27,033 nucleotides of DNA, from the IMG/VR virus record IMGVR_UViG_3300020717_000020, positions 1-27,033 of that record; one strand, written 5' to 3'. Made by a program: the position numbers and the translations under genes. A model generated the notes under the pieces. It did no database searches, was not told the origin of the DNA, and saw only the letters and a list, made by a program, of their open reading frames with translations. Source of the stretch: a virus. Positions 1 to 15,115 of this stretch are shown here, piece by piece. Position 1 is the stretch's first letter, and each line of letters begins with the position of its first letter.

Positions 1-112
1 GCTCGGTTCACAGCTCGGTTCACAGCTCTGGTCACAGCTCGGTTCACAGCTCGGTTCACAGCTCTGGTCACAGCTCGATTCACAGCTCGATTCACAGCTC
101 CAAAATACATAA
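1..112 (+). CDS. SQLx tandem-repeat protein, C-terminal part (cut by window edge)
   Basis: Only the end of this gene is visible. The frame from base 2 reads repeated Ser-Gln-Leu-x units, with x in the order G,G,W,G,G,W,D,D, and ends in SQLQNT and TAA at 110-112. The 12-nt unit is TCACAGCTC plus a variable triplet (GGT, GAT or TGG here). The last ~60 bases are identical to the end of the next gene, so the two are recent duplicates. The function is unknown and I recognise no family. The frame is chosen because the related loci all begin with an ATG in this frame. Confidence 0.6.
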   Translation, partial: LGSQLGSQLWSQLGSQLGSQLWSQLDSQLDSQLQNT

Positions 113-349
113 ATGAAAGTTATGAAGCAGATAAACTCACAGCTCAGGTTACAGCTCAGGTTACGGCTCTATTCACAGCTCTATTCACAGCTCGGTTCAC
201 AGCTCGATTCACAGCTCGATTCACAGCTCGGTTCACAGCTCGATTCACAGCTCGGTTCACAGCTCGGTTCACAGCTCGGTTCACAGCTCGGTTCACAGCT
301 CTGGTCACAGCTCGATTCACAGCTCGATTCACAGCTCCAAAATACATAA
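113..349 (+). CDS. SQLx tandem-repeat protein (78 aa)
   Basis: The protein starts MKVMKQINSQL and then consists almost wholly of S-Q-L-x units. The variable residues run R,R,Y,Y,G,D,D,G,D,G,G,G,G,W,D,D before the terminal SQLQNT. Early units are slightly divergent (LQL and LRL instead of SQL), and later ones are exact. The start codon follows directly on the TAA of the preceding repeat gene, which suggests translational coupling. There is no signal peptide, membrane segment or Cys. The four-residue Leu period does not fit a heptad coiled coil. The 12-nt repeat leaves other frames open on both strands, so coding rests on the shared start context (MKQI/MNEI then SQL) at several loci. Confidence 0.6.
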   Translation: MKVMKQINSQLRLQLRLRLYSQLYSQLGSQLDSQLDSQLGSQLDSQLGSQLGSQLGSQLGSQLWSQLDSQLDSQLQNT

Positions 350-362
350 ATGAAAGTTATGG
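113..362 (+). repeat. ~237-bp tandem duplication boundary between SQLx genes
   Basis: The bases from about 64 to 125 recur at about 301 to 362: the tail of the repeat gene, the stop, and the next ATGAAAGTTATG are the same. The offset is 237 bp, a multiple of three, so the duplication preserves frame. After the second copy the gene at 350 begins with the same MKVM but then diverges into unrelated sequence. Confidence 0.65.
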
Positions 363-550
363 ACACAATAAAACACATCATTTTCGGAACTCCAGCAACT
401 GGAGAAAACATCATCGATAGACAACCTGGATTCAGAACGTACTATCCAGATTCTCAAGTCGAATTCAATACCTGGTCGTATCTCTTGAAAGTGGGATCCA
501 GGGTCAAGAAGAATGATCAAGTGAATCCATGGTATAAAAACCGTAAGTAA
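350..550 (+). CDS. Small protein of unknown function (66 aa)
   Basis: The sequence is ordinary and non-repetitive (MKVMDTIKHIIFGTPATGE...WYKNRK), soluble, Lys-rich and without Cys. It begins in the twelve bases ATGAAAGTTATG shared with the upstream SQLx gene. That start is directly adjacent to the previous stop, so the two are probably one transcript. It is flanked on both sides by SQLx repeat genes. I do not recognise a family. The C-terminus has the pattern YLLKVGSRVKKNDQV, which could be part of a small beta-barrel, but this is only an impression. Confidence 0.6.
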   Translation: MKVMDTIKHIIFGTPATGENIIDRQPGFRTYYPDSQVEFNTWSYLLKVGSRVKKNDQVNPWYKNRK

Positions 551-551
551 T

Positions 552-761
552 ATGAATGAGATAAATTCACAGCTCGATTCACAGCTCAATTCACAGCTCT
601 ATTCACAGCTCTATTCACAGCTCGGTTCACAGCTCAGGTCACAGCTCAGGTCACAGCTCAATTCACAGCTCTGGTCACAGCTCGGTTCACAGCTCGGTTC
701 ACAGCTCAATTTACAGCTCTGGTCACAGCTCGATTCACAGCTCCAAAACATAAAAGCATGA
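552..761 (+). CDS. SQLx tandem-repeat protein (69 aa)
   Basis: The protein begins MNEINSQL and carries SQLx units with variable residues D,N,Y,Y,G,R,R,N,W,G,G,N(LQL),W,D, then SQLQNIKA. The variable codons are GAT, AAT, TAT, GGT, AGG and TGG only. It starts two bases after the previous stop and overlaps the next gene by ATGA. The SQLQN tail is shared with the two loci at the window start, while the order of variable residues differs. This argues for either shuffling or independent change at the variable codon. Confidence 0.6.
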   Translation: MNEINSQLDSQLNSQLYSQLYSQLGSQLRSQLRSQLNSQLWSQLGSQLGSQLNLQLWSQLDSQLQNIKA

Positions 762-907
762 AGAAGATCAATAAGTTAAACGTCATCAGGATAATATCAT
801 TCGTCCTATTTACTTTCTATCTGACTTTCAACGGAGTAGATATAAAGATAGGCAGCTTGAAAATTTACGCAAAAGGACTGATAGAAAGATACAAATCTGG
901 CAAATAG
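758..907 (+). CDS. Small membrane protein (49 aa)
   Basis: The ATG at 758 overlaps the stop of the repeat gene (ATGA). The product starts MKKINKLNVIRIISFVLFTF, with one hydrophobic segment at roughly residues 9-24, and a basic C-terminal tail (LIERYKSGK, stop TAG at 905). The charge pattern suggests a single-pass protein anchored by its N-terminal segment. No family is recognised. It precedes the holin-like gene, so a role at the membrane in lysis is possible but not shown. Confidence 0.55.
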   Translation: MKKINKLNVIRIISFVLFTFYLTFNGVDIKIGSLKIYAKGLIERYKSGK

Positions 908-910
908 TCT

Positions 911-920
911 GATATTTATT
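911..920 (+). promoter_or_regulatory. GATATTTAT promoter-like box
   Basis: GATATTTATT lies 18 nt before the ATG at 939. The same 9-10 nt core recurs before other genes in the window (1648, 16516, 21563, 25205). It can be read as a variant of the Bacteroidota -7 box TAnnTTTR with the first T replaced by G. Confidence 0.4.
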
Positions 921-938
921 GTTAGTAAATTTCATCAG

Positions 939-1247
939 ATGTTCAGATCCATGTTAGAGGTCCCAGCAAACCCGGTCAACGCAGAGGGGATACAGAATTA
1001 CGTCCTTCAGTACGGGATCCTGGGAGTGATAACGGTCGTTTTGGCCTACGTAGCGTTCCAACAGTATCAAAAGCTGGTAGAAAGGAACGAGATGCTGGAA
1101 GAGAAGATCGACCGAGTACAGCAGGAGATGAACGATCTGCTTGTAGAAGAGAGAGACAGGATGTCAAAACTGATACAGGACAACACCCAAGCTCTCAACG
1201 ATCTGCAAAAGACCATACTAAACTTCATGATCACCGAAAGAAAATAG
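939..1247 (+). CDS. Membrane-anchored coiled-coil protein, holin-like (102 aa)
   Basis: After about 25 residues comes one hydrophobic segment (YGILGVITVVLAYVAF, about residues 25-41). A long charged coiled coil follows (KLVERNEMLEEKIDRVQQEMNDLL onward) to the end (FMITERK). One N-terminal membrane segment followed by a charged helix is the layout of BhlA/UviB-type small phage proteins and of several Bacteroidota phage holin candidates. The gene has its own GATATTTAT box. A membrane tether or i-spanin-like protein is an alternative. The organisation is clear; the holin label is inference. Confidence 0.65.
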   Translation: MFRSMLEVPANPVNAEGIQNYVLQYGILGVITVVLAYVAFQQYQKLVERNEMLEEKIDRVQQEMNDLLVEERDRMSKLIQDNTQALNDLQKTILNFMITERK

Positions 1248-1251
1248 GTCC

Positions 1252-1365
1252 ATGCTTAACTACTACGTTTACATACTGTTCTTCTCTACGATCGTAATCC
1301 TGTCTTTAAAGAAGAAGAACAACAAGATGGCAAGATACTACAAAGAAGAAGAACAAGAAAAATAG
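1252..1365 (+). CDS. Tiny membrane peptide (37 aa)
   Basis: The start is five bases after the preceding stop. The product MLNYYVYILFFSTIVILSLK has one hydrophobic segment, followed by a strongly charged tail (KKKNNKMARYYKEEEQEK). Position and charge fit a small inner-membrane accessory protein co-transcribed with the holin-like gene. No family is recognised and the gene is too short for certainty. Confidence 0.5.
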   Translation: MLNYYVYILFFSTIVILSLKKKNNKMARYYKEEEQEK

Positions 1366-1422
1366 ACTTCTCCCTATCGCAGATAAAGTTTATATTTACC
1401 ACACACAAACAGTTATAGACCA

Positions 1423-1659
1423 ATGGAAGAACCAATATATTATTGCAAAGTATGCGACACTGCCATACACCCTAAGAGAGTAGAATTGGGATACAGGACC
1501 ACGTGTGTCAACCACTCTGAAGCCAAAAAGTTCGTAGGGCTCATAGTCACAGAGGGAAAAGAGAGCGAAGAGGTGTCATCGATACAAGTCATTCGAGACC
1601 CTAGTCTTGCCCAAGAGATAGAGAGACTCAAGTCTTCGAACCAGTCAGATATTTATTAG
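1423..1659 (+). CDS. Small zinc-ribbon-like protein (78 aa)
   Basis: The N-terminal half has a C-x2-C motif (YYCKVCD, residues 8-11) and a second C-x2-H (TCVNH, about residues 28-31), spaced as in short treble-clef or zinc-ribbon proteins. The C-terminal half is acidic and probably helical. The upstream leader has TTTATATTTACC about 30 nt before the ATG. Such proteins in phages can bind nucleic acid or other proteins; nothing here distinguishes these roles. Confidence 0.65.
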   Translation: MEEPIYYCKVCDTAIHPKRVELGYRTTCVNHSEAKKFVGLIVTEGKESEEVSSIQVIRDPSLAQEIERLKSSNQSDIY

Positions 1660-1671
1660 AAACACAACGAG

Positions 1672-1857
1672 ATGTCATACGTTAAAGAAGCCATGAAAGG
1701 ACTGAGTCCAGACGATCAAGACCAACTCAAACAGTACGGAACTTCGATAAAGGAGATCAAGAAGAAGATGTTAGAGTTGATACACAAAGGCAACGCTAAC
1801 CTCACAGAACAGGGAGGCAACATGTCTTCTGGACTCGTGCTGCATGATGAAGAGTAA
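1672..1857 (+). CDS. Small protein of unknown function (61 aa)
   Basis: The product (MSYVKEAMKGLSPDDQDQLK...VLHDEE) is highly charged, predicted helical and soluble. It starts 12 nt after the zinc-ribbon gene; the GATATTTAT box at 1648-1656 overlaps the end of that gene and may serve this one. It ends 11 nt before the next small gene. There are no motifs or Cys and no family is recognised. Confidence 0.6.
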   Translation: MSYVKEAMKGLSPDDQDQLKQYGTSIKEIKKKMLELIHKGNANLTEQGGNMSSGLVLHDEE

Positions 1858-1868
1858 AACCAGACAAG

Positions 1869-2057
1869 ATGGACCAGATAGTAGTCACATTAGAAAGCCT
1901 CATTGAAGAGGTAGAGAGTGCATTGGAATACGGTAAGTCATTAGGATATGCCGAATGTCTAAGTCATACAATGCAAGGTAAACCAGCATCTGACGATCCA
2001 GAAAAAGCTATCAAACATTACATAAAACAGTTGATAGAAGACTACACAGAAGATTAA
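1869..2057 (+). CDS. Small acidic helical protein (62 aa)
   Basis: MDQIVVTLESLIEEVESALEYG... is acidic and mostly helical, with a single Cys. It lies in the same tight run as its neighbours with a gap of 11 nt upstream. I do not recognise it. A helical adaptor or inhibitor would look like this, but so would many short phage proteins. Confidence 0.6.
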   Translation: MDQIVVTLESLIEEVESALEYGKSLGYAECLSHTMQGKPASDDPEKAIKHYIKQLIEDYTED

Positions 2058-2080
2058 TCACACCCAAAACAATAAAGTAT

Positions 2081-2257
2081 ATGAAGACGGTAAAGATCAC
2101 AAAAGACGGCCAGTACAAAAGGCTGAACGACCAAGAGGCACACTCTGTCGTATCTTCAAACAAGGCCAAGTACGTTCCAAAATCAGAATGGAAGAATAAT
2201 GTTCGAGACTACAAAGTAGACAGGATCTTGGAAAAGGAGGCCAAATCCAAGCCATGA
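2081..2257 (+). CDS. Small basic protein of unknown function (58 aa)
   Basis: The ATG at 2081 opens a frame for MKTVKITKDGQYKRLNDQEA...KEAKSKP, ending in TGA at 2255-2257. It is rich in Lys, with a beta-strand-like N-terminus of the kind found in small SH3-like phage proteins. The stop overlaps the ATG of the next gene (ATGA), which is the usual coupling pattern in this window. No family is recognised. Confidence 0.55.
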   Translation: MKTVKITKDGQYKRLNDQEAHSVVSSNKAKYVPKSEWKNNVRDYKVDRILEKEAKSKP

Positions 2258-2391
2258 CATCGCTGATCATCACACTGTTCTTCTGTCTTGAGTTCTTATC
2301 GTACTCTAGGAACATGCTTCTGAGAGTAAACAGAGACCTAAACCAAGAAGACCTAGCGCCGGAGACAGAGGTGCTCCCAGAAAATCACTAA
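2254..2391 (+). CDS. Tiny membrane protein (45 aa)
   Basis: MTSLIITLFFCLEFLSYSRN is hydrophobic for its first ~16 residues, and is followed by a charged tail ending LPENH. The gene overlaps the previous one by ATGA. It is a single-pass membrane peptide of unknown role. Confidence 0.5.
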   Translation: MTSLIITLFFCLEFLSYSRNMLLRVNRDLNQEDLAPETEVLPENH

Positions 2392-2488
2392 ACATCAAAT
2401 AGTTTCAATTCTAGGCATCCAGATCTTTCAGACTATACAACGCATAGGTTTGGATCTGGACTGTCCTGTTTTAATCCCGAATGAGCAT

Positions 2489-2671
2489 ATGGACCAGTTA
2501 ATAGTGTGCGCGCTGTCGCTGATAGATTGCGCGTTGATAATACTGCTACACAGATCTAAGAAGAAAATATCAAATGCAGATCCGGTGGCGTCTCCTATCT
2601 TGGTAGTAGAAAGCATATTCGTGATCTTTGCTCTTTGTCTTGGAGTTAAGTTGACGATGTTCTTACTTTAG
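2489..2671 (+). CDS. Small membrane protein with two hydrophobic segments (60 aa)
   Basis: From the ATG at 2489 the product reads MDQLIVCALSLIDCALIILL, then a basic loop RSKKK, then a second hydrophobic stretch (SPILVVESIFVIFALCLGVK). Two helices joined by a basic loop suggest an integral membrane hairpin. A TTG at 2450 in the same frame would add 13 residues, but ATG is preferred. No family is recognised. Confidence 0.55.
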   Translation: MDQLIVCALSLIDCALIILLHRSKKKISNADPVASPILVVESIFVIFALCLGVKLTMFLL

Positions 2672-2702
2672 AGATAGATTTCTTTCCTATTAGACCTTGT
2701 GT

Positions 2703-2710
2703 TACTTTTA
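2703..2710 (+). promoter_or_regulatory. Promoter -7 box TACTTTTA
   Basis: TACTTTTA ends only five bases before the ATG at 2716. A start site a few bases downstream of the box would give an mRNA with almost no leader. Confidence 0.55.
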
Positions 2711-2715
2711 TATCT

Positions 2716-2913
2716 ATGAAGCAGATCACATTCGGTTACAACGAAGGAGTTGTGTATGCCATCCATAAATTTTTTGACTCAAAAAATCTTATAGGATCGT
2801 ACATGAATGCGGCCGCAATGCCATATTTTGAGTGGACAGGAGTCTTTAGCAGATCGATATTATCAACAACATTTCCTATAAAAGAGCAAGTACAAACAGC
2901 ATGGCCGATATAA
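2716..2913 (+). CDS. Small protein of unknown function (65 aa)
   Basis: MKQITFGYNEGVVYAIHKFFDS... is mixed hydrophobic and polar, without a clear membrane segment. It is transcribed from the adjacent TACTTTTA box with almost no leader, and it overlaps the start of the nuclease-like gene at 2901. The MKQI start recurs in several unrelated small genes here. No family is recognised. Confidence 0.55.
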   Translation: MKQITFGYNEGVVYAIHKFFDSKNLIGSYMNAAAMPYFEWTGVFSRSILSTTFPIKEQVQTAWPI

Positions 2914-3338
2914 TAAAGTTCAGAAAAGAAGACATCAAAGATCAGCATGCGCTGGCCCAGATGGTACAAGAAGAGACCAAGAGGATATACGAATCTCCTA
3001 GGGCAAGAAAAGGCAGAGCTTGGTCTGTGATAGAGAAGATGGTCTGGCAAGGAAAGCCGGCAGAGATGTGGCTCATAGAGAATTTGGGATACACTCCAGC
3101 TCCTCCTACTGTAAACTCAAAAGGTGAGCATACATACTACCATGACTTGATAGATCCCAACGGGGTAGACATCACCGAGGTCAAAGCCTGGACAGAAGAT
3201 CACATCAACAGAGGAATAGAGACTACGGTCAGAAAGATACTTTCTGGAACTTGGAACATGAGTACTCAGGTGGTGGTGTTCGCATTTGAACCGCAAGACC
3301 ACACATACACATACATAGATAAGATACAGATCAGATGA
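2901..3338 (+). CDS. Putative PD-(D/E)xK-type nuclease (145 aa)
   Basis: The centre reads YYHDLIDPNGVDITEVKAW (about residues 78-97): an acidic residue, a turn, then E-V-K on a predicted strand. This is the classic D-xn-ExK catalytic arrangement of the restriction-endonuclease fold. An upstream helix (WQGKPAEMWLIE) and a downstream hydrophobic strand (TQVVVFAFEP) fit that core. The length of 145 aa suits a minimal single-domain enzyme. It overlaps the previous gene by 13 nt and the next by ATGA. The substrate is unknown; host DNA degradation, recombination or Holliday junction resolution are all possible. The call rests on motif and fold pattern only. Confidence 0.55.
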   Translation: MADIIKFRKEDIKDQHALAQMVQEETKRIYESPRARKGRAWSVIEKMVWQGKPAEMWLIENLGYTPAPPTVNSKGEHTYYHDLIDPNGVDITEVKAWTEDHINRGIETTVRKILSGTWNMSTQVVVFAFEPQDHTYTYIDKIQIR

Positions 3339-3520
3339 AATCAGTAATAGCGATAAGTCAAAGCGTCTTTTCTTGGAGAAGATTAGTAGAGGATCAACTT
3401 TATGGAGGCGTAAAAATCCAAAAGACCAAACTCAAAACCTTTGTAGAATCTTTTAATACTTTTAACAACGAGCTCCAACTAAGGACCATAAACCTAACAA
3501 TACAACCAATCTCAAGATGA
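3335..3520 (+). CDS. Small protein of unknown function (61 aa)
   Basis: MKSVIAISQSVFSWRRLVEDQLYGGVKIQKTK... overlaps the nuclease-like gene by ATGA and the next gene by ATGA. It is basic and predicted mixed alpha/beta. It contains a DQL tripeptide; short D/SQL tripeptides also occur in 3679 and 4016, and may be coincidence. No family is recognised. Confidence 0.5.
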   Translation: MKSVIAISQSVFSWRRLVEDQLYGGVKIQKTKLKTFVESFNTFNNELQLRTINLTIQPISR

Positions 3521-3672
3521 GACAGCTGCATCGTATAGAATTCTTAGGCAAAATACAACCTTGGGTACTATTCAGAGGGTTAGATAACGTAGTATTCAAT
3601 GATCTGATATTCGATAACCTCATAGATCCAAAGTATCCACAGATGCGTCAACTTAGAATTTATTATTTTTAG
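3517..3672 (+). CDS. Small protein of unknown function (51 aa)
   Basis: The ATG at 3517 overlaps the previous stop (ATGA) and the frame runs to TAG at 3670-3672. The product MRQLHRIEFLGKIQPWVLFR...LRIYYF has many aromatic and hydrophobic residues but no distinct membrane helix. It is supported mainly by the coupled arrangement. Confidence 0.5.
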   Translation: MRQLHRIEFLGKIQPWVLFRGLDNVVFNDLIFDNLIDPKYPQMRQLRIYYF

Positions 3673-3678
3673 TATAAC

Positions 3679-3861
3679 ATGAAAGACACAGAGATCATAT
3701 TCGCTAAGATAGTCGATTCTTGCGATCTGTCAGAAAGACATCCAAAGGAGTTTCCATCTATACGTGAATTAAATCGTCACATTTATAACATATACTCTTC
3801 GTTTGGCGATCAATTAAGAGGAGTCGGTAGACCATTAGAAGATCAACTCCACATTCAATGA
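3679..3861 (+). CDS. Small protein of unknown function (60 aa)
   Basis: The product MKDTEIIFAKIVDSCDLSER... begins six bases after the previous stop and overlaps the next gene by ATGA. The C-terminal third contains GDQLRGVGRPLEDQLHIQ, two DQL tripeptides 12 residues apart. It is soluble, with one Cys. No family is recognised. Confidence 0.5.
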   Translation: MKDTEIIFAKIVDSCDLSERHPKEFPSIRELNRHIYNIYSSFGDQLRGVGRPLEDQLHIQ

Positions 3862-4016
3862 AAAATATAACAGGTTACATAGAGAGGAGTGACGCTCTAA
3901 GGTCAGAACAGATAGATACACTAAGGATAAAACTGGAACCGAGCTCAATAGACATGGAACTAACGAGAGCTCACATGTACAGGATCATCTCAGCATTAAA
4001 AGATAGGATAGAATAA
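3858..4016 (+). CDS. Small helical protein of unknown function (52 aa)
   Basis: The frame from ATG 3858 reads MKNITGYIERSDALRSEQID...SALKDRIE and ends in TAA at 4014. It is highly charged and predicted all-helical. It overlaps both neighbours by one to four bases, so these tiny genes form one translationally coupled series. Confidence 0.5.
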   Translation: MKNITGYIERSDALRSEQIDTLRIKLEPSSIDMELTRAHMYRIISALKDRIE

Positions 4017-4135
4017 TGAAACAGATATCATACCAGATGATAATCAGAAATCCTGGAAAGATAGGATCACAACTGGACACTCCACATAGCGTAAAGTCCA
4101 AGTACTACTCCATGCCAAAAGGATATATGATATAG
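4016..4135 (+). CDS. Very small protein (39 aa)
   Basis: The gene begins in the TAATG overlap at 4014-4018. It encodes MKQISYQMIIRNPGKIGSQL...MPKGYMI, basic and without motifs. It carries one SQLD tetrapeptide, the same as a repeat unit of the SQLx proteins; whether that is chance cannot be told from one copy. The following 109 bases (4136-4244) have no convincing start codon in any frame. Confidence 0.4.
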   Translation: MKQISYQMIIRNPGKIGSQLDTPHSVKSKYYSMPKGYMI

Positions 4136-4244
4136 ACTATGGATCACTAAGAACCGATTGGACAACAAAGCTAATCCTATGGACACTCCCGCTAAAAGCA
4201 TCCCAACTATTGACTGAACTAGAAGAACGACTGAGGACGACACG

Positions 4245-4388
4245 ATGAAACAGAATATTATAGAGATGACATCGATCCAAGACACAGTGATCAAAAGACT
4301 ACCAAAGGATATCATGAACACAATTGATAATTTCCTAGAACTACAACAGGTACTATCACTCATACCTATAATACGACTAGAAGAATAG
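4245..4388 (+). CDS. Small helical protein (47 aa)
   Basis: ATG at 4245, product MKQNIIEMTSIQDTVIKRLP...PIIRLEE, stop TAG at 4386-4388. It is helical, with a hydrophobic face in the C-terminal half. It is the last of the coupled small genes before a lipoprotein gene. No family is recognised. Confidence 0.45.
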   Translation: MKQNIIEMTSIQDTVIKRLPKDIMNTIDNFLELQQVLSLIPIIRLEE

Positions 4389-4429
4389 AACCACATCATA
4401 AATAAAAAACCAGAATAATAATCAACTAT

Positions 4430-4579
4430 ATGAAGAAGACACAGATAATGATACTAGGACTGATAACAATGACTATATCAAGTACCATGTCATGCGACTA
4501 TCCACACTCAGGGAGAACAGTAGTAAAGATAGAGAACACCAAGAACGACTACGAATGCCTATACTACACGGAAGTATAG
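4430..4579 (+). CDS. Small lipoprotein, 5' part of a broken gene (49 aa)
   Basis: The N-terminus MKKTQIMILGLITMTISSTM followed by SCDYPHS is a lipoprotein signal with a lipobox-like TMSC, so Cys at about residue 22 would be lipidated. The frame stops at TAG (4577-4579) after TEV. The adjacent -1 frame continues with protein-like sequence (see 4555-4719), ending in a YRVGDTLRL pattern I associate with small Bacteroidota phage lipoproteins. The gene is therefore probably longer in relatives. Confidence 0.5.
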   Translation: MKKTQIMILGLITMTISSTMSCDYPHSGRTVVKIENTKNDYECLYYTEV

Positions 4580-4719
4580 GAGGAGTATACGGACGGTGTG
4601 ATCTGTACAGGGTAGGAGACACGCTGAGGCTGACACGATAGGATGAGAGAGAGATCGAGCTCTGCGACTATGAAGATATTTCTAAGTGTGGTACCAACAA
4701 GAGAAAGTGGTACTTATAA
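4555..4719 (+). pseudogene. Out-of-frame continuation of the lipoprotein gene
   Basis: In the -1 frame relative to 4430, the sequence reads GGVYGRCDLYRVGDTLRLTR, stops at TAG (4639-4641), then continues in the same frame as DEREIELCDYEDISKCG to TAA (4717-4719). It thus looks like one coding sequence with a frameshift near 4570 and an in-frame amber codon. Other genes here use TAG as a normal stop, so recoding is unlikely. Decay or an assembly error is the simplest reading. Confidence 0.35.
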
Positions 4720-4983
4720 TAAAAAAGGTATTTCAAAGCAGTAAAAGGTATTAAAAGCTACCAAAAGTAGGAAGAGATACCCAGTAAATAAAAAAGGTAT
4801 AATACGGAGCATTCTCTTGCGAAGAAAAATCCATCTCCGTAGTACACCATATATATTTTATGCTAATGCATACCACCATGGACTTATATTTCCTTAGATC
4901 AAAAAAGTATTTCTGACAACAAAAAACGATCTGCAATGTCAAGCAACAAAAAAGAATGGCTTCATATGCAAGCAGACTTGTAG

Positions 4984-4991
4984 TACATTTG
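4984..4991 (+). promoter_or_regulatory. Promoter -7 box TACATTTG
   Basis: TACATTTG matches the Bacteroidota consensus TAnnTTTG exactly and ends five bases before the ATG at 4997. Confidence 0.55.
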
Positions 4992-4996
4992 TCCAT

Positions 4997-5161
4997 ATGA
5001 ATATCTTGCACAGCATAACGTGGATGGGAGTTATGAACTCAAGCATAGGAGCACAGCTTGACCACCCAGACATCGCTAGAATAGTATACTGGATCTCTTT
5101 GGGCGCAGAGAGCTTGACAGCAGTAGATACAGCCATAGATAGGCAGAAGCTTTGGACTTGA
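4997..5161 (+). CDS. Small protein of unknown function (54 aa)
   Basis: From the ATG at 4997 the product is MNILHSITWMGVMNSSIGAQ...DRQKLWT, ending TGA at 5159. It contains short helices with Trp and Ile/Leu spacing, but no obvious membrane span. It is expressed from the TACATTTG box immediately upstream with almost no leader, and is isolated by the motif-rich gap before it. Confidence 0.55.
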   Translation: MNILHSITWMGVMNSSIGAQLDHPDIARIVYWISLGAESLTAVDTAIDRQKLWT

Positions 5162-5216
5162 AACGAAAAAAGTACTTAGATCAAAAAAGGTATTTATATT
5201 TACATCAAAATGAAAA

Positions 5217-5860: not shown

Positions 5861-5864
5861 CTCT

Positions 5865-8952: not shown

Positions 8953-9546
8953 ATGAACACATTTCTAATTAAAAAAGAGCATTTAGACAAAGACAATTAC
9001 TACGTAGGTAAAGAAGACCTAAGTAACTACCAAGGACATATAGAAGCAGAAGAAGACCTCGGAACAGTAAAATTCAAAGGCCACTTAACTGCTTCCGGTA
9101 ATATATACTTTAAAGCTGGTAGTGGTATTGAAGCTGGCGATGGTATTGAAGCTAGTGGGGGTATTAAAGCTGGTGGGGGTATTAAAGCTGGTTGTGGTAT
9201 TAAAGCTGGTTGGGGTATTAAAGCTGGTTGGGGTATTAAAGCTGGTTTGGGTATTGAAGCTGGTTGGGGTATTAAAGCTGGTTGGGGTATTGAAGCTGGT
9301 TGGGGTATTGAAGCTGGTTGGGGTATAATTTGTAAAGGAGAGCTATCAAGTAAACTAAGAATATTTGCCGGATTAACTACTTGGAAAATACCTACTAAAG
9401 AAGAGATGCAAATAAAAGTAGGCAAATTAGTACTAGGTCAAGTGTGTTACGGTGAGTTAATTGAGACCGGATTACCAAAAGAAGATTGCTGCGAGGGTAA
9501 AGTAGTAGAGATAGATGGAAAGAAGTATCAACTAAAGGCTATATAA
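8953..9546 (+). CDS. GIxAGx tandem-repeat protein, likely beta-solenoid (197 aa)
   Basis: There are three parts. Residues 1-53 form a non-repetitive head (MNTFLIKKEHLDKDNYYVGK...). Residues ~54-128 are about 12 six-residue units G-I-(K/E)-A-G-x, encoded by an 18-nt repeat, with x = S, D, (S)G, G, C, W, W, L, W, W, W, W. The tail (ICKGELSSKLRIFAGLTTWK...) is non-repetitive. Short Gly/Ile-rich hexamers of this kind fit a left-handed beta-helix or bactofilin-like solenoid with the variable residues on one face. The first bases of the head and tail are ordinary AT-rich coding sequence. It precedes an LSm-like gene and a second repeat gene. Confidence 0.7.
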   Translation: MNTFLIKKEHLDKDNYYVGKEDLSNYQGHIEAEEDLGTVKFKGHLTASGNIYFKAGSGIEAGDGIEASGGIKAGGGIKAGCGIKAGWGIKAGWGIKAGLGIEAGWGIKAGWGIEAGWGIEAGWGIICKGELSSKLRIFAGLTTWKIPTKEEMQIKVGKLVLGQVCYGELIETGLPKEDCCEGKVVEIDGKKYQLKAI

Positions 9547-9570
9547 ATAAATAACTAAAAACAACAGAAT

Positions 9571-9843: not shown

Positions 9844-9845
9844 TT

Positions 9846-10007
9846 ATGAGCTGTATTAAATTTAAAAAGAAGTCTGGGTCTAGGTCTTGGTCTGGGTCTT
9901 GGTCTTGGTCTGGGTCTTGGTCTAGGTCTTGGTCTAGGTCTAGGTCTGGGTCTAGGTCTGGGTCTGGGTCTTGGTCTGAGTCTGGGTCTGGGTCTTGGTC
10001 TATATAA
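9846..10007 (+). CDS. Serine-x dipeptide repeat protein (53 aa)
   Basis: From ATG 9846 the product is MSCIKFKKK followed by 21 Ser-x dipeptides and a final SI. The 6-nt unit is TCT plus a variable triplet GGG, AGG, TGG or once GAG, giving x = G, R, W or E. The TAA is at 10005. It starts two bases after the LSm-like gene, so translation is probably coupled. The basic head with Ser/Arg/Trp/Gly repeats resembles RNA-binding low-complexity tails. The coding claim rests on the coupled start and on an intact frame throughout. Confidence 0.5.
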   Translation: MSCIKFKKKSGSRSWSGSWSWSGSWSRSWSRSRSGSRSGSGSWSESGSGSWSI

Positions 10008-10044
10008 TTATTGCAGAAAGACTTGGATAATATCTAAACTTTTA

Positions 10045-10265
10045 TACATCAAAGCTCTATCTTAGAGAAAGTGTGTATATTTATTACAGTAAGCAGAGAA
10101 CATAATTATACCGTCCTGGAAAGACCTAAGAATTACACACTCATTACGAAGACTTCATTCTTTCGCAATAATACATTACTTTAAAATATTCTGGGTCTTT
10201 CCACATTAGGGGTTATTAACCCGGACCAGATACTGAAGCATCTCCCAAAAGGAGGTGCTTTTTTT
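10045..10265 (+). ncRNA. Candidate structured RNA with pseudoknot and terminator
   Basis: A promoter-like CTAAACTTTTATACATC (about 10034-10050) precedes a gene-free stretch. AGTGTGTA (10070-10077) pairs with TACACACT (10134-10141). TGGAAAGACC (10117-10126) pairs with GGTCTTTCCA (10194-10203). The two helices interleave, so together they would form a pseudoknot. There is also a CTCTA/TAGAG hairpin (10056-10068) and GGGTT/AACCC (10210-10222). The end is an intrinsic terminator (10236-10265). No ORF is credible here. Confidence 0.6.
10236..10265 (+). terminator. Intrinsic terminator of the RNA
   Basis: AAGCATCTCC pairs with GGAGGTGCTT through ten pairs (one G-T) around CAAAA, followed by seven T residues. 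Confidence 0.9.
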
Positions 10266-10600
10266 ATGTCTCTACCTATAAGGTCTTAATCGGGTTCATT
10301 CCTTGTGTTATTACAGAGATATCACTAATGAAATATCCGCTCAGTTACAATAGAGCTTGGTGGTTGATTTTAACTTTACACCAAGAAAACATCAGACGTC
10401 TAAAAGTGGTAGCAATGTCCTAACCTGACAACTATCGACAGCGAAATAAATAGCAACAGACAGTCTGCCCTTAGGATATGGGTTTGTATTATGGGATAGT
10501 GAGCTTGATCTGTTATATGTAAAAAAGCTCACAACTTTGATTATCTGGTCCTCCAGCTATTCGCTGGATATAGTGGTTATGTCTCATAGTAGAAAAACAA
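10266..10600 (+). other. Gene-free structured region
   Basis: No ORF with a credible start is seen. Several perfect inverted repeats are: CTTGGTG (10356-10362) with CACCAAG, TCCTAA with TTAGGA around 10418-10476, the palindromic CAGACAGTCTG near 10460, GTGAGCTT with AAGCTCAC around 10499-10533, and CCAGC/GCTGG near 10552-10566. A box-like TTAACTTTACACC lies near 10370. It may be a second RNA, a replication or packaging site, or a long leader. Confidence 0.4.
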
Positions 10601-10647
10601 ATACTTGAGAAATAACTTTCAAGTGTCAATTTAATTCATTACTTTTA
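10596..10647 (+). promoter_or_regulatory. Hairpin plus promoter module
   Basis: ACAAATACTTGA has its right arm at TCAAGT, giving a shorter six-pair ACTTGA/TCAAGT hairpin, followed by the box TACTTTTA (10640-10647) before the gene at 10670. Confidence 0.55.
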
Positions 10648-10669
10648 TCTAGTACTAAAAACAACAACA

Positions 10670-10828
10670 ATGTCAACAGCAAACAACGAAGCTCAGAAAG
10701 CAAACATACAGGACCAGATAAAGAAAATCTTTAATGAGTATGCGACTGGTGGGTATTGGTTAGAAATATCAGCAGACGACTTGGATGAGTTTGCTAAAAG
10801 AATTGTGGACGAGATAATCACACAGTAA
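10670..10828 (+). CDS. Small acidic protein, paralogue of the gene at 13008 (52 aa)
   Basis: ATG 10670 encodes MSTANNEAQKANIQDQIKKI followed by FNEYATGGYWLEISADDLDE and an acidic helical tail. The central 30 residues are nearly identical to the 47-aa protein at 13008. The conserved IQDQIKKIFNEYATG-x-YWLE core suggests a small domain under purifying selection. It has its own promoter module. The function is unknown. Confidence 0.7.
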   Translation: MSTANNEAQKANIQDQIKKIFNEYATGGYWLEISADDLDEFAKRIVDEIITQ

Positions 10829-10875
10829 GAAAACAAATATACGTCCAGAAACTTTCTAGTGTCAATTATTTCACG

Positions 10876-10883
10876 TACTTTTA
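10876..10883 (+). promoter_or_regulatory. Promoter -7 box TACTTTTA
   Basis: TTTCACGTACTTTTATAACATACCAAAC, preceded by AAAACAAATATACGTC at 10830. TACGT there and ACGTA at the box can pair. It drives the gene at 10907. Confidence 0.6.
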
Positions 10884-10906
10884 TAACATACCAAACAACA
10901 AACAAC

Positions 10907-11407
10907 ATGCGTACAGTAACACAGAACATTTGCAAATTTGAAGAGCTATCAGAAAAGGCACAGGCCAAAGTCCTCGCCGACAACTCAGAACTACTGACAG
11001 GATACGGTTGGTGGTCAGATACAGTCAAAGAAGACGCCAAGGGGACAGCAGGCCTTGATATAGAAGAATTCGATCTATATCCTCCATACATTAAGGCAAA
11101 TTTCACTACGTCAGCCAAATCTAGCGCTCTCAAGGTCGTTTCTGAGCACGGTGAGCATTGCGCCACATATTCCATCGCCAAGAAGTTTCTGAGCGATCTG
11201 GATGAACTGGAGCGCCAAGAAGACACAGCCAAGACTGAAGCAGAACTGGAAGAATTGGAAGAAGCGTATCTCGAAGACCTCAGTAGAGAATACCTTAATA
11301 TGTTAGAGAATGAATACGAATATCTTTGCTCTGAAGAGGCGATATCCGATCATATTATAGATAACGGGTGGGAATTCTACGAAGACGGTCGGGGATATAT
11401 GTCATAG
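10907..11407 (+). CDS. Acidic helical protein with FEELSEKAQ-type N-terminus (166 aa)
   Basis: Start at ATG 10907; the open frame extends upstream only through the promoter. The N-terminus NICKFEELSEKAQAKVLADN resembles a motif (F-x-E-L-S-x-x-A-x-x-x-A) found at the start of many phage and plasmid hypothetical proteins. The middle has WWSDTVKEDAKGTAGLDIEE and a Tyr/Pro-rich strand. Residues ~100-145 form a long acidic coiled coil (LDELERQEDTAKTEAELEEL). Tyr and Glu dominate the end. DNA mimicry or an inhibitor role would fit the acidity but is not shown. Confidence 0.7.
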   Translation: MRTVTQNICKFEELSEKAQAKVLADNSELLTGYGWWSDTVKEDAKGTAGLDIEEFDLYPPYIKANFTTSAKSSALKVVSEHGEHCATYSIAKKFLSDLDELERQEDTAKTEAELEELEEAYLEDLSREYLNMLENEYEYLCSEEAISDHIIDNGWEFYEDGRGYMS

Positions 11408-11457
11408 TATGAAAACAAATACCTGACAAAAAGCTTTTTTAAGTCGATTATTTCACG

Positions 11458-11465
11458 TACATTTA
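11458..11465 (+). promoter_or_regulatory. Promoter -7 box TACATTTA
   Basis: TTTCACGTACATTTACTAAG, preceded by AAAACAAATACCTGAC at 11413, drives the gene at 11491. Confidence 0.55.
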
Positions 11466-11490
11466 CTAAGTAACAAACAATCAAAATATT

Positions 11491-12597
11491 ATGATAAAGC
11501 AAGGAACGATCTATTTTGCAGTTGTCAACTTCATCAACGCCTACAAACCAGGAGAAACATACACGAGCGAGGACTTTAAGAATGCACTCTATGATATGAC
11601 TCGAGAAAAAGGTCAACACAGAGTATGGTACGGACAGTGGTACCGCGTACGTGCCTACCAGTCGTATTTCAGACGTGCTGGGTTCATCACCAATGTCAAG
11701 AGAGGACTTTGGCGAGTAGAACATCGGGTACCAGACTTTATGTCCCTGTTTGCGCTAGAAACGCTAATGGGATATAAAGATGGATATTACAACGGAAGAG
11801 AGTACGTCAAGAAGGATCCTGCGTATAATAACGATCTGAAAAGGAGACTCGAAGAGTACAAAGCCGGGAATAATTCCTTAGAAGGGAATCTATACGTCAG
11901 GTGCACAAAGACCAATTCAAGATACTACATAGAAGGCCACGAGTACGAAGTCCTTGAGACAGACAGCGATGGATACGCGACCAGGATCATCAACGAATAT
12001 GGTCACCCTTGGACATTAGTAGATCCACGAGAAGACACTTTCATGAACCTACCATATAGGGGCAAAAGAGGAGATCGTAAGAAGATAGAACCAGAAGAGC
12101 CAAAGACAGACCACACTGCGGAGATCAAGAGGCTGGGATACAAACCTGGAATGAAAGTGAAGCTGGTCAAGACAGACTCAATGATCTATAAGAGTGCAGC
12201 ATATTATATCAAAGAAGCGAACCTGCAAGTAGGAGAGATCTACACGATAACAGGCTTCAGTAGTAATAGAATTGCCGAAGGAGGAGAATGGTTCTTTGAT
12301 CTGGAGAATACCGTCTACCATACACCATACGATTGCTTTGAACCATACGCAGAAGAGGCAGAGAAGCCACGCAAAAGGATGATGACATGCCAAGAGGCTG
12401 GATCTTACAGGCATTTGACTAACGGCAAAGAGTATCAGATCGTAGGAGAAGAGGACGGGTACTATCACGTGATCAATGAGAAAGGAGATGAGGTGCACAT
12501 GTTCAAATGGAGGTTCGCACAGACAGAGCAGATCCCTACAGACAGACTACCGCAGTTCCTAGAAGAGCTGGAGATCCTGATAGCAAAATACAAATAA
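11491..12597 (+). CDS. Large multi-module protein, winged-helix-like head and SH3-like repeats (368 aa)
   Basis: Residues 1-85 (IYFAVVNFINAYKPGETYTS...RGLWRVEHRVP) look like a winged helix: helices, then a basic recognition-like segment with RAYQSYFRRAGF. Three beta-rich modules follow. The first starts near 130 (LYVRCTKTNSRYYIEGHEYE), the second near 220 (GMKVKLVKTDSMIYKSAAYY), and the third near 315 (YRHLTNGKEYQIVGEEDGYY). Each has a G-x-x-Y-x-I/V pattern typical of SH3/KOW-like barrels. DNA or RNA binding is plausible. I do not recognise a named family, and no catalytic motif is visible. It is the longest protein in the window. Confidence 0.7.
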   Translation: MIKQGTIYFAVVNFINAYKPGETYTSEDFKNALYDMTREKGQHRVWYGQWYRVRAYQSYFRRAGFITNVKRGLWRVEHRVPDFMSLFALETLMGYKDGYYNGREYVKKDPAYNNDLKRRLEEYKAGNNSLEGNLYVRCTKTNSRYYIEGHEYEVLETDSDGYATRIINEYGHPWTLVDPREDTFMNLPYRGKRGDRKKIEPEEPKTDHTAEIKRLGYKPGMKVKLVKTDSMIYKSAAYYIKEANLQVGEIYTITGFSSNRIAEGGEWFFDLENTVYHTPYDCFEPYAEEAEKPRKRMMTCQEAGSYRHLTNGKEYQIVGEEDGYYHVINEKGDEVHMFKWRFAQTEQIPTDRLPQFLEELEILIAKYK

Positions 12598-12677
12598 GAG
12601 AGTTGTTGTTTGATACACAGAGAGGAGCTGGCTAATACGTCCGCTACTTTCTTATTTAACTACCAAAACATAATACC

Positions 12678-12923
12678 ATGAAACAGATAGACGTAAGGTC
12701 ACAGCTCAATTCACAGCTCAGGTCACAGATCGGTTCACAGCTCAGGTCACAGCTCAGGGAACAGCTCTATTCACAGCTCAATTTACAGCTCAGGTCACAG
12801 CTCGATTCACAGCTCTGGTCACAGCTCGATTCACAGCTCGATTCACAGCTCTGGTCACAGCTCAATTCACAGCTCAGGTCACAGCTCGATTCACAGCTCA
12901 GTAGTACGCTGAGCCATATGTAG
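12678..12923 (+). CDS. SQLx tandem-repeat protein (81 aa)
   Basis: MKQIDVRSQL is followed by units whose variable residues run N,R,G,R,R,Y,N,R,D,W,D,D,W,N,R,D, ending SQLSSTLSHM. Rare unit changes include SQI, EQL and LQL. It stands alone, about 12 kb from the loci at the window start, behind a weak box (CTACTTTCTTATT near 12643). A GC-rich hairpin follows directly. The array shares the six-residue alphabet D, G, N, R, W, Y with the other loci but not their order. Confidence 0.6.
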   Translation: MKQIDVRSQLNSQLRSQIGSQLRSQLREQLYSQLNLQLRSQLDSQLWSQLDSQLDSQLWSQLNSQLRSQLDSQLSSTLSHM

Positions 12924-12929
12924 ACATGG

Positions 12930-12989
12930 GAGCCCAGGCTACCTGGCCAAGAGCGCGGCAAGGAATTAGTCAGATGATGGCCTGGGCTC
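12930..12989 (+). promoter_or_regulatory. Stable GC-rich stem in the gap after the SQLx gene
   Basis: GAGCCCAGGC (12930-12939) pairs perfectly with GCCTGGGCTC (12980-12989), with a 40-nt apical region containing CTGGCC and GCGGC. There is no T run, so it is not a normal terminator. It lies between the repeat-gene stop and the ATG at 13008 and could be an RNA-stability or regulatory element. Confidence 0.5.
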
Positions 12990-13007
12990 TCACAAACACA
13001 GATCAGC

Positions 13008-13151
13008 ATGAACGCACAGAACAGCGAGTCCATACAGGACCAGATAAAGAAGATATTCAACGAGTACGCCACTGGCACATACTGGCTAGAGGTCTCAGCA
13101 GACGACCTAGACGAGATCGCCAAGAGGATAGAGTCAGAGGTGATGCGTTAA
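13008..13151 (+). CDS. Small acidic protein, paralogue of the gene at 10670 (47 aa)
   Basis: ATG 13008 opens MNAQNSESIQDQIKKIFNEY followed by ATGTYWLEVSADDLDEIAKR, ending in TAA at 13149. The core matches the 10670 gene almost residue for residue, but third codon positions differ widely, which supports coding and some age. A longer frame from 12926 crossing this gene is a shadow. No function is known. Confidence 0.65.
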   Translation: MNAQNSESIQDQIKKIFNEYATGTYWLEVSADDLDEIAKRIESEVMR

Positions 13152-13198
13152 AAAAACAAATATACGACCAAAAAATGAAAAATGTAAAAAGTATTGCG

Positions 13199-13206
13199 TA
13201 CTTTTA
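13199..13206 (+). promoter_or_regulatory. Promoter -7 box TACTTTTA
   Basis: GCGTACTTTTACATCATACCAAAC, preceded by AAAACAAATATACGACC at 13153. It drives the gene at 13229. Confidence 0.6.
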
Positions 13207-13228
13207 CATCATACCAAACAACAACAGC

Positions 13229-13492
13229 ATGACACGCATAATGGACAGAGACTCAGTTCTCTATTGGCTGAGCAAGAACGTAAGCTACCAGGCGGCGATA
13301 GCCACAGAAGACAAGATCACCTACTCGATAGGCATAAAGAAAGAGCACGGAGGCCAGCGGTTCGATGACTACGTGTTGGTAGACACCCTAGAGGAGATCT
13401 TGAGCTCTCAAGTGCTCAGAGAGCTGGAGTGCCACGTGACGACACACATGATAGAAAAAGAGCACCTGTACTACACGGGCGCGATGGTCTAG
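13229..13492 (+). CDS. Small protein of unknown function (87 aa)
   Basis: Start at ATG 13229, placed 23 nt after the promoter box with the usual ACCAAACAACAAC leader. The upstream extension of the frame is out of register with the real neighbour and is rejected. The product MTRIMDRDSVLYWLSKNVSY...EHLYYTGAMV is mixed alpha/beta and soluble. No family is recognised. A GC-rich structured element starts right after the stop. Confidence 0.65.
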   Translation: MTRIMDRDSVLYWLSKNVSYQAAIATEDKITYSIGIKKEHGGQRFDDYVLVDTLEEILSSQVLRELECHVTTHMIEKEHLYYTGAMV

Positions 13493-13495
13493 CTA

Positions 13496-13640
13496 GGAGG
13501 CGGGGCCGGTACCTTTTTTGTATCGGAGATCTTCTGAGCTGGCAGCTTGGAGGCGGCGCACTAGCATGATGCTGGCATTCTGCCAAAGGCTCACATTTAT
13601 GGTGCTAGGGGCCTGCTAGCAGGGGGGGCCCCGCCTAAGG
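13496..13640 (+). ncRNA. Candidate GC-rich structured RNA
   Basis: AGGCGGGGCC (13498-13507) pairs perfectly with GGCCCCGCCT (13627-13636), closing a ~120-nt multibranch region. Inside are GGTAC/GTATC around a T-rich loop, TGGCA-TTC-TGCCA (about 13572-13584), and CTAGCA with TGCTAG. GC content is much higher than in the surrounding sequence and no ORF is open. It follows the gene at 13229 directly and could be processed from that mRNA or be independent. I match it to no known RNA family. Confidence 0.55.
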
Positions 13641-13695
13641 TAAACTTACGCACACGGGAATTTTTCAACGTCTGACAAAAAAATATATACAACAT

Positions 13696-13954
13696 ATGAA
13701 AGTACTACACGTCACCCCCCTCTTCTAATGGATACGAAGAGGCATCGCTGCTCGCTAACAGGATGAATAAGAAGAATAGCTTCGCAGTTATAGAAAAAGA
13801 CGGCCAGATCCTTATGACCGGAGGGTTTATATTGCACGACAATGAGCAGACCAGAGCGCTGCTTGGCTGTGTTCCAAGAGAAGATCAACATGAGTATGTA
13901 AGGATGCTTAGAGAGACGCCGTGGGTAAAGCCCTACTTTGAAGAAGAAGAGTGA
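13696..13954 (+). CDS. Small protein requiring a +1 frameshift (about 86 aa)
   Basis: ATG 13696 reads MKVLHVTPLF and meets TAA at 13726-13728. If one base is skipped after TTC, the frame continues NGYEEASLLANRMNKKNSFA...ETPWVKPYFEEEE to TGA at 13952. The join gives VTPLFNGYEE; from memory, related phage proteins have a continuous VTP-x-SNGYE at this point, so the two parts belong together. The site, CTC TTC TAA TGG after a run of six C, is either a programmed +1 site at a stop codon, an indel mutation or a sequencing error. The alternative is a shorter 63-aa protein from ATG 13763. Function unknown. Confidence 0.6.
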
Positions 13955-13956
13955 TG

Positions 13957-14106
13957 ATGACCAAAAAAAGAGGTACATTTAGATATGAACAACAGGGCAT
14001 ACTTACTCGAAGGGCAGATCCGGCCGCCGGGTTTTGGGCAAAAAAGCAAAAAAGCCGACTCCAAACCCCAGGAAAATTTGAGTATCCCAGAAAAATGTAT
14101 ATATGA
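13957..14106 (+). CDS. Small basic protein of unknown function (49 aa)
   Basis: ATG 13957 starts two bases after the previous stop and the frame ends in TGA at 14104-14106. The product MTKKRGTFRYEQQGILTRRA followed by DPAAGFWAKKQKSRLQTPGK is basic, with Trp/Phe. It fits between its neighbours with an ATGA-type overlap at 14103. An alternative frame from ATG 13985 is rejected because it runs across two coupled genes. The TTTAGATATG stretch resembling a promoter is inside this gene. Confidence 0.6.
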   Translation: MTKKRGTFRYEQQGILTRRADPAAGFWAKKQKSRLQTPGKFEYPRKMYI

Positions 14107-14282
14107 AACAGACAAAATATTTCATAGACCCAGTTCCGCCAAGGATCAACGCGGCGTTCGAAGACATGTATGGGCAAGACGAAGTAGAGGCAGCGTGGTA
14201 TACCGAGGATAACATCTTCAACTCGACTGGGGATTGCCTTTGGGAGATAGTCAACGCATTAAACATAGACTCAAGAAAATGA
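14103..14282 (+). CDS. Small acidic protein of unknown function (59 aa)
   Basis: ATG 14103 overlaps the previous stop and ends in TGA at 14280, which overlaps the next start. The product MKQTKYFIDPVPPRINAAFE followed by DMYGQDEVEAAWYTEDNIFN is acidic with several Trp/Tyr. No family is recognised. The double overlap is good evidence for this frame. Confidence 0.6.
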   Translation: MKQTKYFIDPVPPRINAAFEDMYGQDEVEAAWYTEDNIFNSTGDCLWEIVNALNIDSRK

Positions 14283-14419
14283 AAAAGACAGACTTATTTT
14301 GGGACTTATCTGATCTTTTTCCCAAAGCGTCTTTAATATTCGAAGGAAGATCTCCAATTATAATAGCCCTAGATCCTTACTACGATATGTCCCAAATGAT
14401 CACTTCACAATTAATTTAA
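14279..14419 (+). CDS. Small protein of unknown function (46 aa)
   Basis: The start at ATG 14279 overlaps the previous stop (ATGA); an upstream in-frame ATG at 14234 lies inside the previous gene and is less likely. The product MKKTDLFWDLSDLFPKASLI... has Phe/Trp/Asp-rich segments and one SQL near the end. No family is recognised. Confidence 0.55.
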   Translation: MKKTDLFWDLSDLFPKASLIFEGRSPIIIALDPYYDMSQMITSQLI

Positions 14420-14424
14420 AACAT

Positions 14425-14631
14425 ATGATAACATTGATGATTTTATTGACCGGCTCTGTGCTGGCCTACCGCAGGATGAGAAGAACGTGGATAAGAAAAT
14501 TCGGAGATTCTCCTGATTGGGGCAGGGTAGCGGTATGCATAGGGAGCTTTTTACTATCTTGGCTAGGCGTCTTGATCGCAGTGATGCTGGACGATAGCAC
14601 CGAGTTTCCAAAACCACCAAAATGGATGTAA
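14425..14631 (+). CDS. Small membrane protein (68 aa)
   Basis: Two hydrophobic segments are visible: MITLMILLTGSVLAY at the start and VAVCIGSFLLSWLGVLIAVM near residues 36-55. They are separated by a basic stretch (RRMRRTWIRKF). The tail (DDSTEFPKPPKWM) is polar. The positive-inside rule would put the basic loop in the cytoplasm. The layout resembles small two-helix holin-type proteins, but the identity is open. Confidence 0.6.
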   Translation: MITLMILLTGSVLAYRRMRRTWIRKFGDSPDWGRVAVCIGSFLLSWLGVLIAVMLDDSTEFPKPPKWM

Positions 14632-14632
14632 C

Positions 14633-14806
14633 ATGAAAACATACACGAGCATACAGAAACTCTTTGGCGATAAGTCAATATCACACGTATTCCCTCCCAC
14701 GCACGATACTTTTTTAGACGACGAGCTAGAGAAGTTTGGTTTCTATGGGATCATCGACTCTCTGTATGAGATTACTTATACACATCCGGATATGAGACTT
14801 ATATAG
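14633..14806 (+). CDS. Small protein of unknown function (57 aa)
   Basis: ATG 14633 follows the previous stop by one base. The product MKTYTSIQKLFGDKSISHVF...DMRLI ends at TAG 14804. It has conserved-looking acidic and aromatic residues (DTFLDDELEKFGFYG). No family is recognised. Confidence 0.5.
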   Translation: MKTYTSIQKLFGDKSISHVFPPTHDTFLDDELEKFGFYGIIDSLYEITYTHPDMRLI

Positions 14807-14857
14807 GCTGTTTGGGCCGGACTTTAGAGAATGGCTTAAAATTTTCACAAAAAAGAC

Positions 14858-14865
14858 GTACATTT
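14858..14865 (+). promoter_or_regulatory. Promoter -7 box TACATTTA
   Basis: AAAAAAGACGTACATTTAGATATG puts TACATTTA four bases before the ATG of the SQLx gene at 14870. The same AAAAAGACGTA prefix occurs before 16261 and before the tmRNA. Confidence 0.55.
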
Positions 14866-14869
14866 AGAT

Positions 14870-15115
14870 ATGAAGCAGATCGATTCACAGCTCAATTCAC
14901 AGCTCTATTCACAGCTCAATTCACAGCTCTATTCACAGCTCTATTCACAGCTCGGTTCACAGCTCTGGTCACAGCTCAGGTTACAGCTCTATTCACAGCT
15001 CTGGTCACAGCTCGGTTCACAGCTCGGTTCACAGCTCAGGTCACAGCTCGGTTCACAGCTCATCAGGTCACAGCTCAGGTCACAGCTCAGGTCACAGCTC
15101 AGGTCACAGCTCTAA
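14870..15115 (+). CDS. SQLx tandem-repeat protein (81 aa)
   Basis: MKQIDSQL is followed by variable residues N,Y,N,Y,Y,G,W,R,Y,W,G,G,R,G,(IR),R,R,R, and the array ends directly at a stop after SQL. One unit carries a three-base insertion (IR instead of one residue), which keeps the frame, and the last units are exact RSQL copies. The frame is held across ~19 units despite many substitutions, which argues that protein, not only DNA, is selected. The promoter lies only a few bases upstream. Confidence 0.65.
   Translation: MKQIDSQLNSQLYSQLNSQLYSQLYSQLGSQLWSQLRLQLYSQLWSQLGSQLGSQLRSQLGSQLIRSQLRSQLRSQLRSQL

What the first reader, a model, noticed from the sequence alone, without database searches (positions are those of the whole stretch)
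1..15115. Five loci of (Ser-Gln-Leu-x)n tandem-repeat genes with a restricted variable codon
At 1-112, 113-349, 552-761, 12678-12923 and 14870-15115 the sequence is almost only a 12-nt unit, TCACAGCTC plus a variable triplet. The triplet is nearly always GGT, GAT, AAT, TAT, TGG or AGG (G, D, N, Y, W, R). The order differs at each locus, rare changes elsewhere in the unit (S to L, E; L to I) do not break the frame, and one three-base insertion keeps it. Fixed positions are conserved and one residue varies in a narrow set, which looks like selected or generated diversity on a scaffold (surface ligand, decoy, or RNA/DNA-binding array). I know of no such protein family. Seen directly: repeats, codons and frame. 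Inferred: function.
Basis: partly seen in the sequence, partly recalled or inferred. Interest (0 to 1): 0.8.

Follow-up and report, generated by a model that had tools for sequence, protein, structure and literature searches.

The report
Split-off tetrapeptide-repeat genes of a phage
A freshwater bacteria-infecting virus carries several tiny genes made almost only of a four-amino-acid repeat with one changeable position; they are free-standing copies of a repeat that in many other phages sits inside one conserved protein (DUF6745), and the only tested protein of similar design, in an unrelated phage, helps the phage escape bacterial defences when its repeat number changes.

Summary
The arrays are real and at the stated coordinates: four complete SQLx genes plus one cut off at base 1. 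They are not an isolated curiosity. The same 12-nt, x-S-Q-L type repeat occurs in frame inside viral DUF6745 (PF20530) proteins: 64 distinct examples with many scaffolds (SQV, DQV, DSV, ASV, AAT, SAV), variable codon 88% NRN. A small 'QGDV...GH.H' gene (phrog_27831) sits beside DUF6745 in at least 46 of 47 viral loci. Relatives of the window's phage carry this pair, with a repeat-less DUF6745-like protein, just upstream of the first SQLx gene. Three other phages have repeat-less DUF6745 beside free-standing repeat genes. So the SQLx genes are most likely the detached, multiplied repeat module of the DUF6745 system.

Arrays change by whole-unit gain and loss and by gene-conversion-like patches. 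Order is not conserved between lineages, but arrays are identical in contigs over 99.9% alike. The closest studied protein of similar design, mycobacteriophage Tweety gp54 (not a shown homologue), is a counter-defence protein tuned by repeat number; that function is inferred here, not shown. Scaffold codons are unusually uniform at synonymous sites, which protein selection alone does not explain.

The parts
1..112 (+). 3' end of SQLx gene A1, truncated by the contig end
   Evidence: complete homologue L087:2148-2351, downstream of the DUF6745-like gene
113..349 (+). SQLx gene A2 (78 aa), tandem to A1; ATG directly after the TAA of A1
   Evidence: near-identical contig L036 has only one gene at this place
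350..550 (+). 66-aa ORF of unknown function between SQLx genes, conserved in relatives (67-74% aa identity in L035, L037, L057); no Pfam or PADLOC hit
552..761 (+). SQLx gene B (69 aa); likely source type of the patch seen in the L054 copy of gene D
12678..12923 (+). SQLx gene C (81 aa); 24-nt (two-unit) deletion in L054
14858..14866 (+). promoter-like GTACATTTA box just upstream of gene D; one of 10 GTACWTTTA copies in the window (0.55 expected)
14870..15115 (+). SQLx gene D (81 aa); predicted as one long helix, low pTM
15062..15064 (+). in-frame ATC insertion (Ile) in gene D

Best explanation
The SQLx ORFs are real small proteins: free-standing, duplicated copies of the tetrapeptide-repeat module that in other phages is embedded in DUF6745 proteins. 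DUF6745 is in turn paired with a small QGDV/GH.H protein. In this phage family the DUF6745-like protein has no internal repeat and the repeat is supplied as separate, variable polypeptides made from several loci. Array length and x-residue order change by unit gain and loss and by recombination or gene conversion between arrays. Most likely they tune an interaction with a host or rival-phage factor, counter-defence being the best analogy (Tweety gp54). Shown: repeat kinship by frame and sequence, synteny, unit-wise turnover. Inferred: expression, joint action with DUF6745, counter-defence role.
For: In-frame xSQL/xSQV/xDQV/xDSV repeats inside DUF6745 proteins: L060 E=1.9e-51, 64 distinct viral ORFs, Mycobacterium phage prophiGD102-1 gp38. 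DUF6745-like ORF in 9 related records, directly upstream of the first SQLx gene where read, hhalign probability 98.7%, E=1.8e-16 to DUF6745. GH.H gene beside DUF6745 in at least 46 of 47 viral loci and upstream of the SQLx locus. Free-standing repeat genes beside repeat-less DUF6745 in L074, L075, L077. Tandem SQLx genes each with ATG and stop in L037. Changes in whole units and a multi-SNP patch matching another locus. Counter-defence analogy: PMC2884959, PMC9262239, PMC8549241.
Against: No expression data. Tweety gp54 shows no Pfam match and no shown homology outside the repeat style. x order is not conserved between lineages, as expected for fast evolution but also for neutrality. Scaffold synonymous sites are far too uniform, pointing to a DNA-level process. 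The window itself does not contain the DUF6745-like or GH.H gene; they lie just outside it, in relatives.
Confidence: 0.6

Rival explanations
1. Selfish or neutral repeat DNA: 12-nt units expand and homogenise by slippage and recombination; the frame is inherited from DUF6745 but the free-standing ORFs have no specific function.
For: Scaffold third positions are almost invariant (16 changes in 849) while neighbouring genes keep only about 45-60% third-base identity at conserved residues between the same phages; modest synonymous excess only; no x-order conservation.
Against: ORFs keep ATG, frame and stop in many lineages, indels seen keep the frame almost throughout, x avoids stops and most hydrophobic residues, conserved neighbourhood with DUF6745 across unrelated phages.
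Confidence: 0.25
2. Programmed diversification (DGR-like or another templated mutator) of a display scaffold.
For: Variation concentrated in one codon with a narrow set.
Against: Arrays identical in at least ten contigs of 99.96-100% identity; changes not adenine-specific and scaffold units change too; x third base varies by lineage; no reverse transcriptase among the window ORFs that were checked.
Confidence: 0.05
3. A DNA- or RNA-level function of the 12-nt repeats (protein binding, recombination or packaging signal) with incidental coding.
For: Synonymous-site uniformity of TCACAGCTC across diverged relatives.
Against: Repeats in DUF6745 of other phages use other DNA scaffolds (TCGCAGCTC, AGCCAGCTC; xDSV, xAAT) and keep only the protein pattern; Rfam finds only tRNAs and tmRNA in the window.
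Confidence: 0.1

Closest known systems
DUF6745 (Pfam PF20530) proteins with internal tetrapeptide repeats, paired with the phrog_27831 'GH.H' protein
   Same: In-frame 4-residue repeat x-[SDAG]-[QSA]-[LVT], x mostly R, G, W, D, Y, E, S, H; same gene neighbourhood
   Different: Here the repeats are separate small ORFs at several loci; the adjacent DUF6745-like protein lacks repeats and scores below Pfam's cut-off
Mycobacteriophage Tweety gp54 (and Che8 gp57, PMC gp51)
   Same: 12-bp, 4-residue repeats with restricted variable residues (G, W, Q; S, Y); copy number differs between relatives
   Different: Repeats flanked by unique N- and C-terminal domains; scaffold AA; no homology outside repeats shown; function tested there, not here
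Bordetella phage BMP-1 VR2 (bbp36), as cited in the Tweety paper
   Same: Copy-number-variable repeats in a phage gene
   Different: 24-bp unit, different sequence; not compared here
(S-x)n and GYGNG-type low-complexity phage ORFs
   Same: Fixed scaffold with one variable codon (window 9846-10007, L154)
   Different: 2-residue period, no DUF6745 link seen

Membership tests
DUF6745 (PF20530) | DUF6745 domain in the protein | tested here: not met
   SQLx ORFs have no DUF6745 match; they resemble only the repeat insert
DUF6745 (PF20530) | Neighbouring protein is a DUF6745 homologue | tested here: met
   Pfam E=4.9e-4, below the cut-off; hhalign 98.7%, E=1.8e-16
DUF6745/GH.H gene module | GH.H gene next to DUF6745, with tetrapeptide repeats | tested here: met
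   in relatives; both genes lie just outside the window
Tweety gp54-type repeat protein | 4-residue repeats with restricted variable residues and varying copy number | tested here: met
Tweety gp54-type repeat protein | Unique N- and C-terminal domains flanking the repeats | tested here: not met
   SQLx ORFs are MKQI plus repeats plus a short tail
Tweety gp54-type repeat protein | Counter-defence activity tuned by repeat number | not testable with these tools
   literature only
Diversity-generating retroelement target | Adenine-directed variation and within-population diversity | tested here: not met
Diversity-generating retroelement target | Reverse transcriptase and template repeat in the genome | not tested
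   window is a fragment; no dedicated RT search was run

The most novel reading that the evidence does not exclude
A modular phage counter-defence or host-takeover system in which a conserved core pair (DUF6745 and GH.H protein) works with a set of separate, recombining tetrapeptide-repeat polypeptides whose length and side-chain order set target specificity.
Probability: 0.3. Interest if true: 0.85.

Novelty: new variant of a known kind. Interest (0 to 1): 0.62.

Why it matters
It connects several scattered observations (orphan SQLx ORFs, DUF6745 proteins with internal repeats, the conserved GH.H gene) into one widespread phage module, and by analogy with Tweety gp54 gives it a testable role. 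The split form makes the question direct: are repeat length and x order a specificity code? It also poses a clean puzzle: repeat scaffolds frozen at synonymous sites.

Tried and rejected
Genome-collection scan for the DNA pattern: four hits; the flanking DNA and frames read show short runs in unrelated contexts, taken as chance. PDB fold search of the DUF6745 model: nothing at E<=0.001; the viral library gave only other DUF6745 or unnamed phage proteins at that level. The SQLx model is one long helix with pLDDT 89 but pTM 0.44 from 10 sequences, and the repeats inside the DUF6745 model are mostly below pLDDT 60; Gly, Asp and Trp at x and Val/Thr in many scaffolds do not suit a helix well, so the repeat fold is left open. 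Weak Pfam, PADLOC and NCBIfam hits of SQLx ORFs (DUF826, Specificity_I and others) lie below curated cut-offs or are weak, and were taken as low-complexity chance; likewise one weak PDB sequence hit. tblastn of an SQLx ORF against named phages: no match, with the low-complexity filter on. No held paper names DUF6745. The primary Tweety counter-defence paper was not held under the DOI tried.

Full report
Observation. The window is a 27,033-base viral contig. Four complete ORFs (113-349, 552-761, 12678-12923, 14870-15115) and the 3' end of a fifth (1-112) consist of 12-nt units TCA CAG CTC x. The two-unit pattern occurs 57 times forward and never in the reversed control. In 66 window units, 61 x codons are GGT, AGG, GAT, TGG, AAT or TAT. 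The in-frame ATC insertion is real.

Relatives. A DNA pattern scan found 30 stretches in viral contigs. Most hold short ORFs beginning MKQI/MKEI followed by SQLx units. L037 has four in tandem, each with its own ATG and stop. In the 62.5-kb relative G018 a DNA polymerase is 52% identical to that of Flavobacterium phage immuto, so a Bacteroidota host is likely for the family (inference).

What the repeat is. Two hits, L060 and L032, carry SQLx units inside a longer protein; L060 is DUF6745 (PF20530, E=1.9e-51). Further scans gave 14 and then 80 viral DUF6745 loci. 64 distinct ORFs carry an internal 4-residue repeat, with scaffolds DSV, ASV, SQV, AAT, SQL, DQV, DQL, SAV and others; over 2118 variable codons the second base is a purine in 88%, and R, G, W, D, Y, E and S are the commonest polar or aromatic residues. 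Mycobacterium phage prophiGD102-1 gp38 has the same (x-[GD]-Q-L)n.

Gene neighbourhood. In 9 of the SQLx-bearing records a DUF6745-like ORF of about 340 aa scores E 7e-7 to 1e-5, below Pfam's cut-off; it lies directly upstream of the first SQLx gene where I read the region. Profile comparison supports homology (probability 98.7%, E=1.8e-16). A small 'QGDV...GH.H' gene (phrog_27831) lies next to DUF6745 in 46 of 47 viral loci with enough upstream sequence; the 47th has it overlapping the open frame. The same gene lies upstream of the DUF6745-like ORF in the window's relatives. In L074, L075 and L077 a repeat-less DUF6745 is followed, after the GH.H gene, by free-standing (x-.-Q-V)n genes. Thus splitting the repeat from DUF6745 is seen with a different scaffold in other phages. 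On Deinococcus and Streptomyces plasmids the GH.H/DUF6745 pair also occurs, beside STM4011-4015-type genes; the Deinococcus protein has a leucine-rich N-terminus instead of the repeat.

How arrays change. In contigs 99.96-100% identical to the window the arrays have no differences (assemblies may hide minorities). In L054 two arrays differ by 7 SNPs in about 490 nt plus a 24-nt deletion, against 7 SNPs in about 6.2 kb elsewhere. Three of these SNPs turn a stretch of gene D into the exact unit series of gene B (TAT TAT GGT AGG AGG AAT TGG GGT GGT), as gene conversion would; repeat misassembly cannot be excluded. L036 has one gene where the window has two. Between lineages whose DUF6745-like proteins are 91-93% identical, x order at the same locus is mostly no more alike than shuffled (16 of 18 cross-lineage pairs p>0.05; exceptions p=0.006 and 0.044).

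An unexplained point. Over 283 units of ten sources only 16 of 849 scaffold third positions differ from TCA CAG CTC, while conserved residues of neighbouring genes share only about 45-60% of third bases between the same lineages. Synonymous to non-synonymous scaffold changes are 16 to 22, against 7:20 possible. So DNA-level homogenisation or constraint, more than purifying selection on the protein, keeps the scaffold uniform. Phage DUF6745 with SQL in other lineages uses TCG CAG CTC or AGC CAG CTC, also uniformly within each.

Structure. AlphaFold2 gives a single long helix for gene D (pLDDT 89, pTM 0.44, 10 sequences). In the L060 model the N- and C-terminal body is confident and the repeats are not. 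No solved fold matches. I do not commit to a repeat fold.

Mechanism. Mycobacteriophage Tweety gp54 has 48 tetrapeptide repeats AA[GWQ][SY] with varying copy number in relatives (PMC2884959). Escape mutants that overcome the Phrann gp29/gp30 prophage defence change the number of repeats (PMC9262239, PMC8549241). Tweety gp54 has no Pfam match, so this is likeness, not membership. By analogy I propose that SQLx proteins are separate, adjustable arms of the DUF6745/GH.H module that tune contact with a host or prophage factor. That step is inferred; neutral repeat turnover remains the main rival.

Noticed in passing
window 19431-19506: tRNA-like gene with an 8-nt anticodon loop (ctCCTAta); relatives L031 and L048 have a one-base-shorter loop with CAT. 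Decayed or four-base-decoding tRNA.
   Followed up: partly
window 8953-9546: ORF with an 18-nt (6-residue) repeat, GWGIKA type, no family match.
   Followed up: partly
window 9846-10007; L031 reverse strand: (S-x)n ORF with x = G, R, W, E; the counterpart in L031 has a different x order.
   Followed up: partly
window 22697-23089: tmRNA with tag ANVELSTWTFEDAMAFAEGELEMAA next to a large tRNA cluster.
   Followed up: no
window, 10 sites: GTACWTTTA promoter-like box, 10 copies against 0.55 expected, several just upstream of ORFs.
   Followed up: partly
L174, L175: Bacterial GH.H/DUF6745 pair beside STM4011-4015-type genes; leucine-rich N-terminus in the Deinococcus DUF6745.
   Followed up: partly
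SQLx scaffolds in ten sources: Third codon positions nearly invariant despite diverged neighbouring genes.
   Followed up: partly
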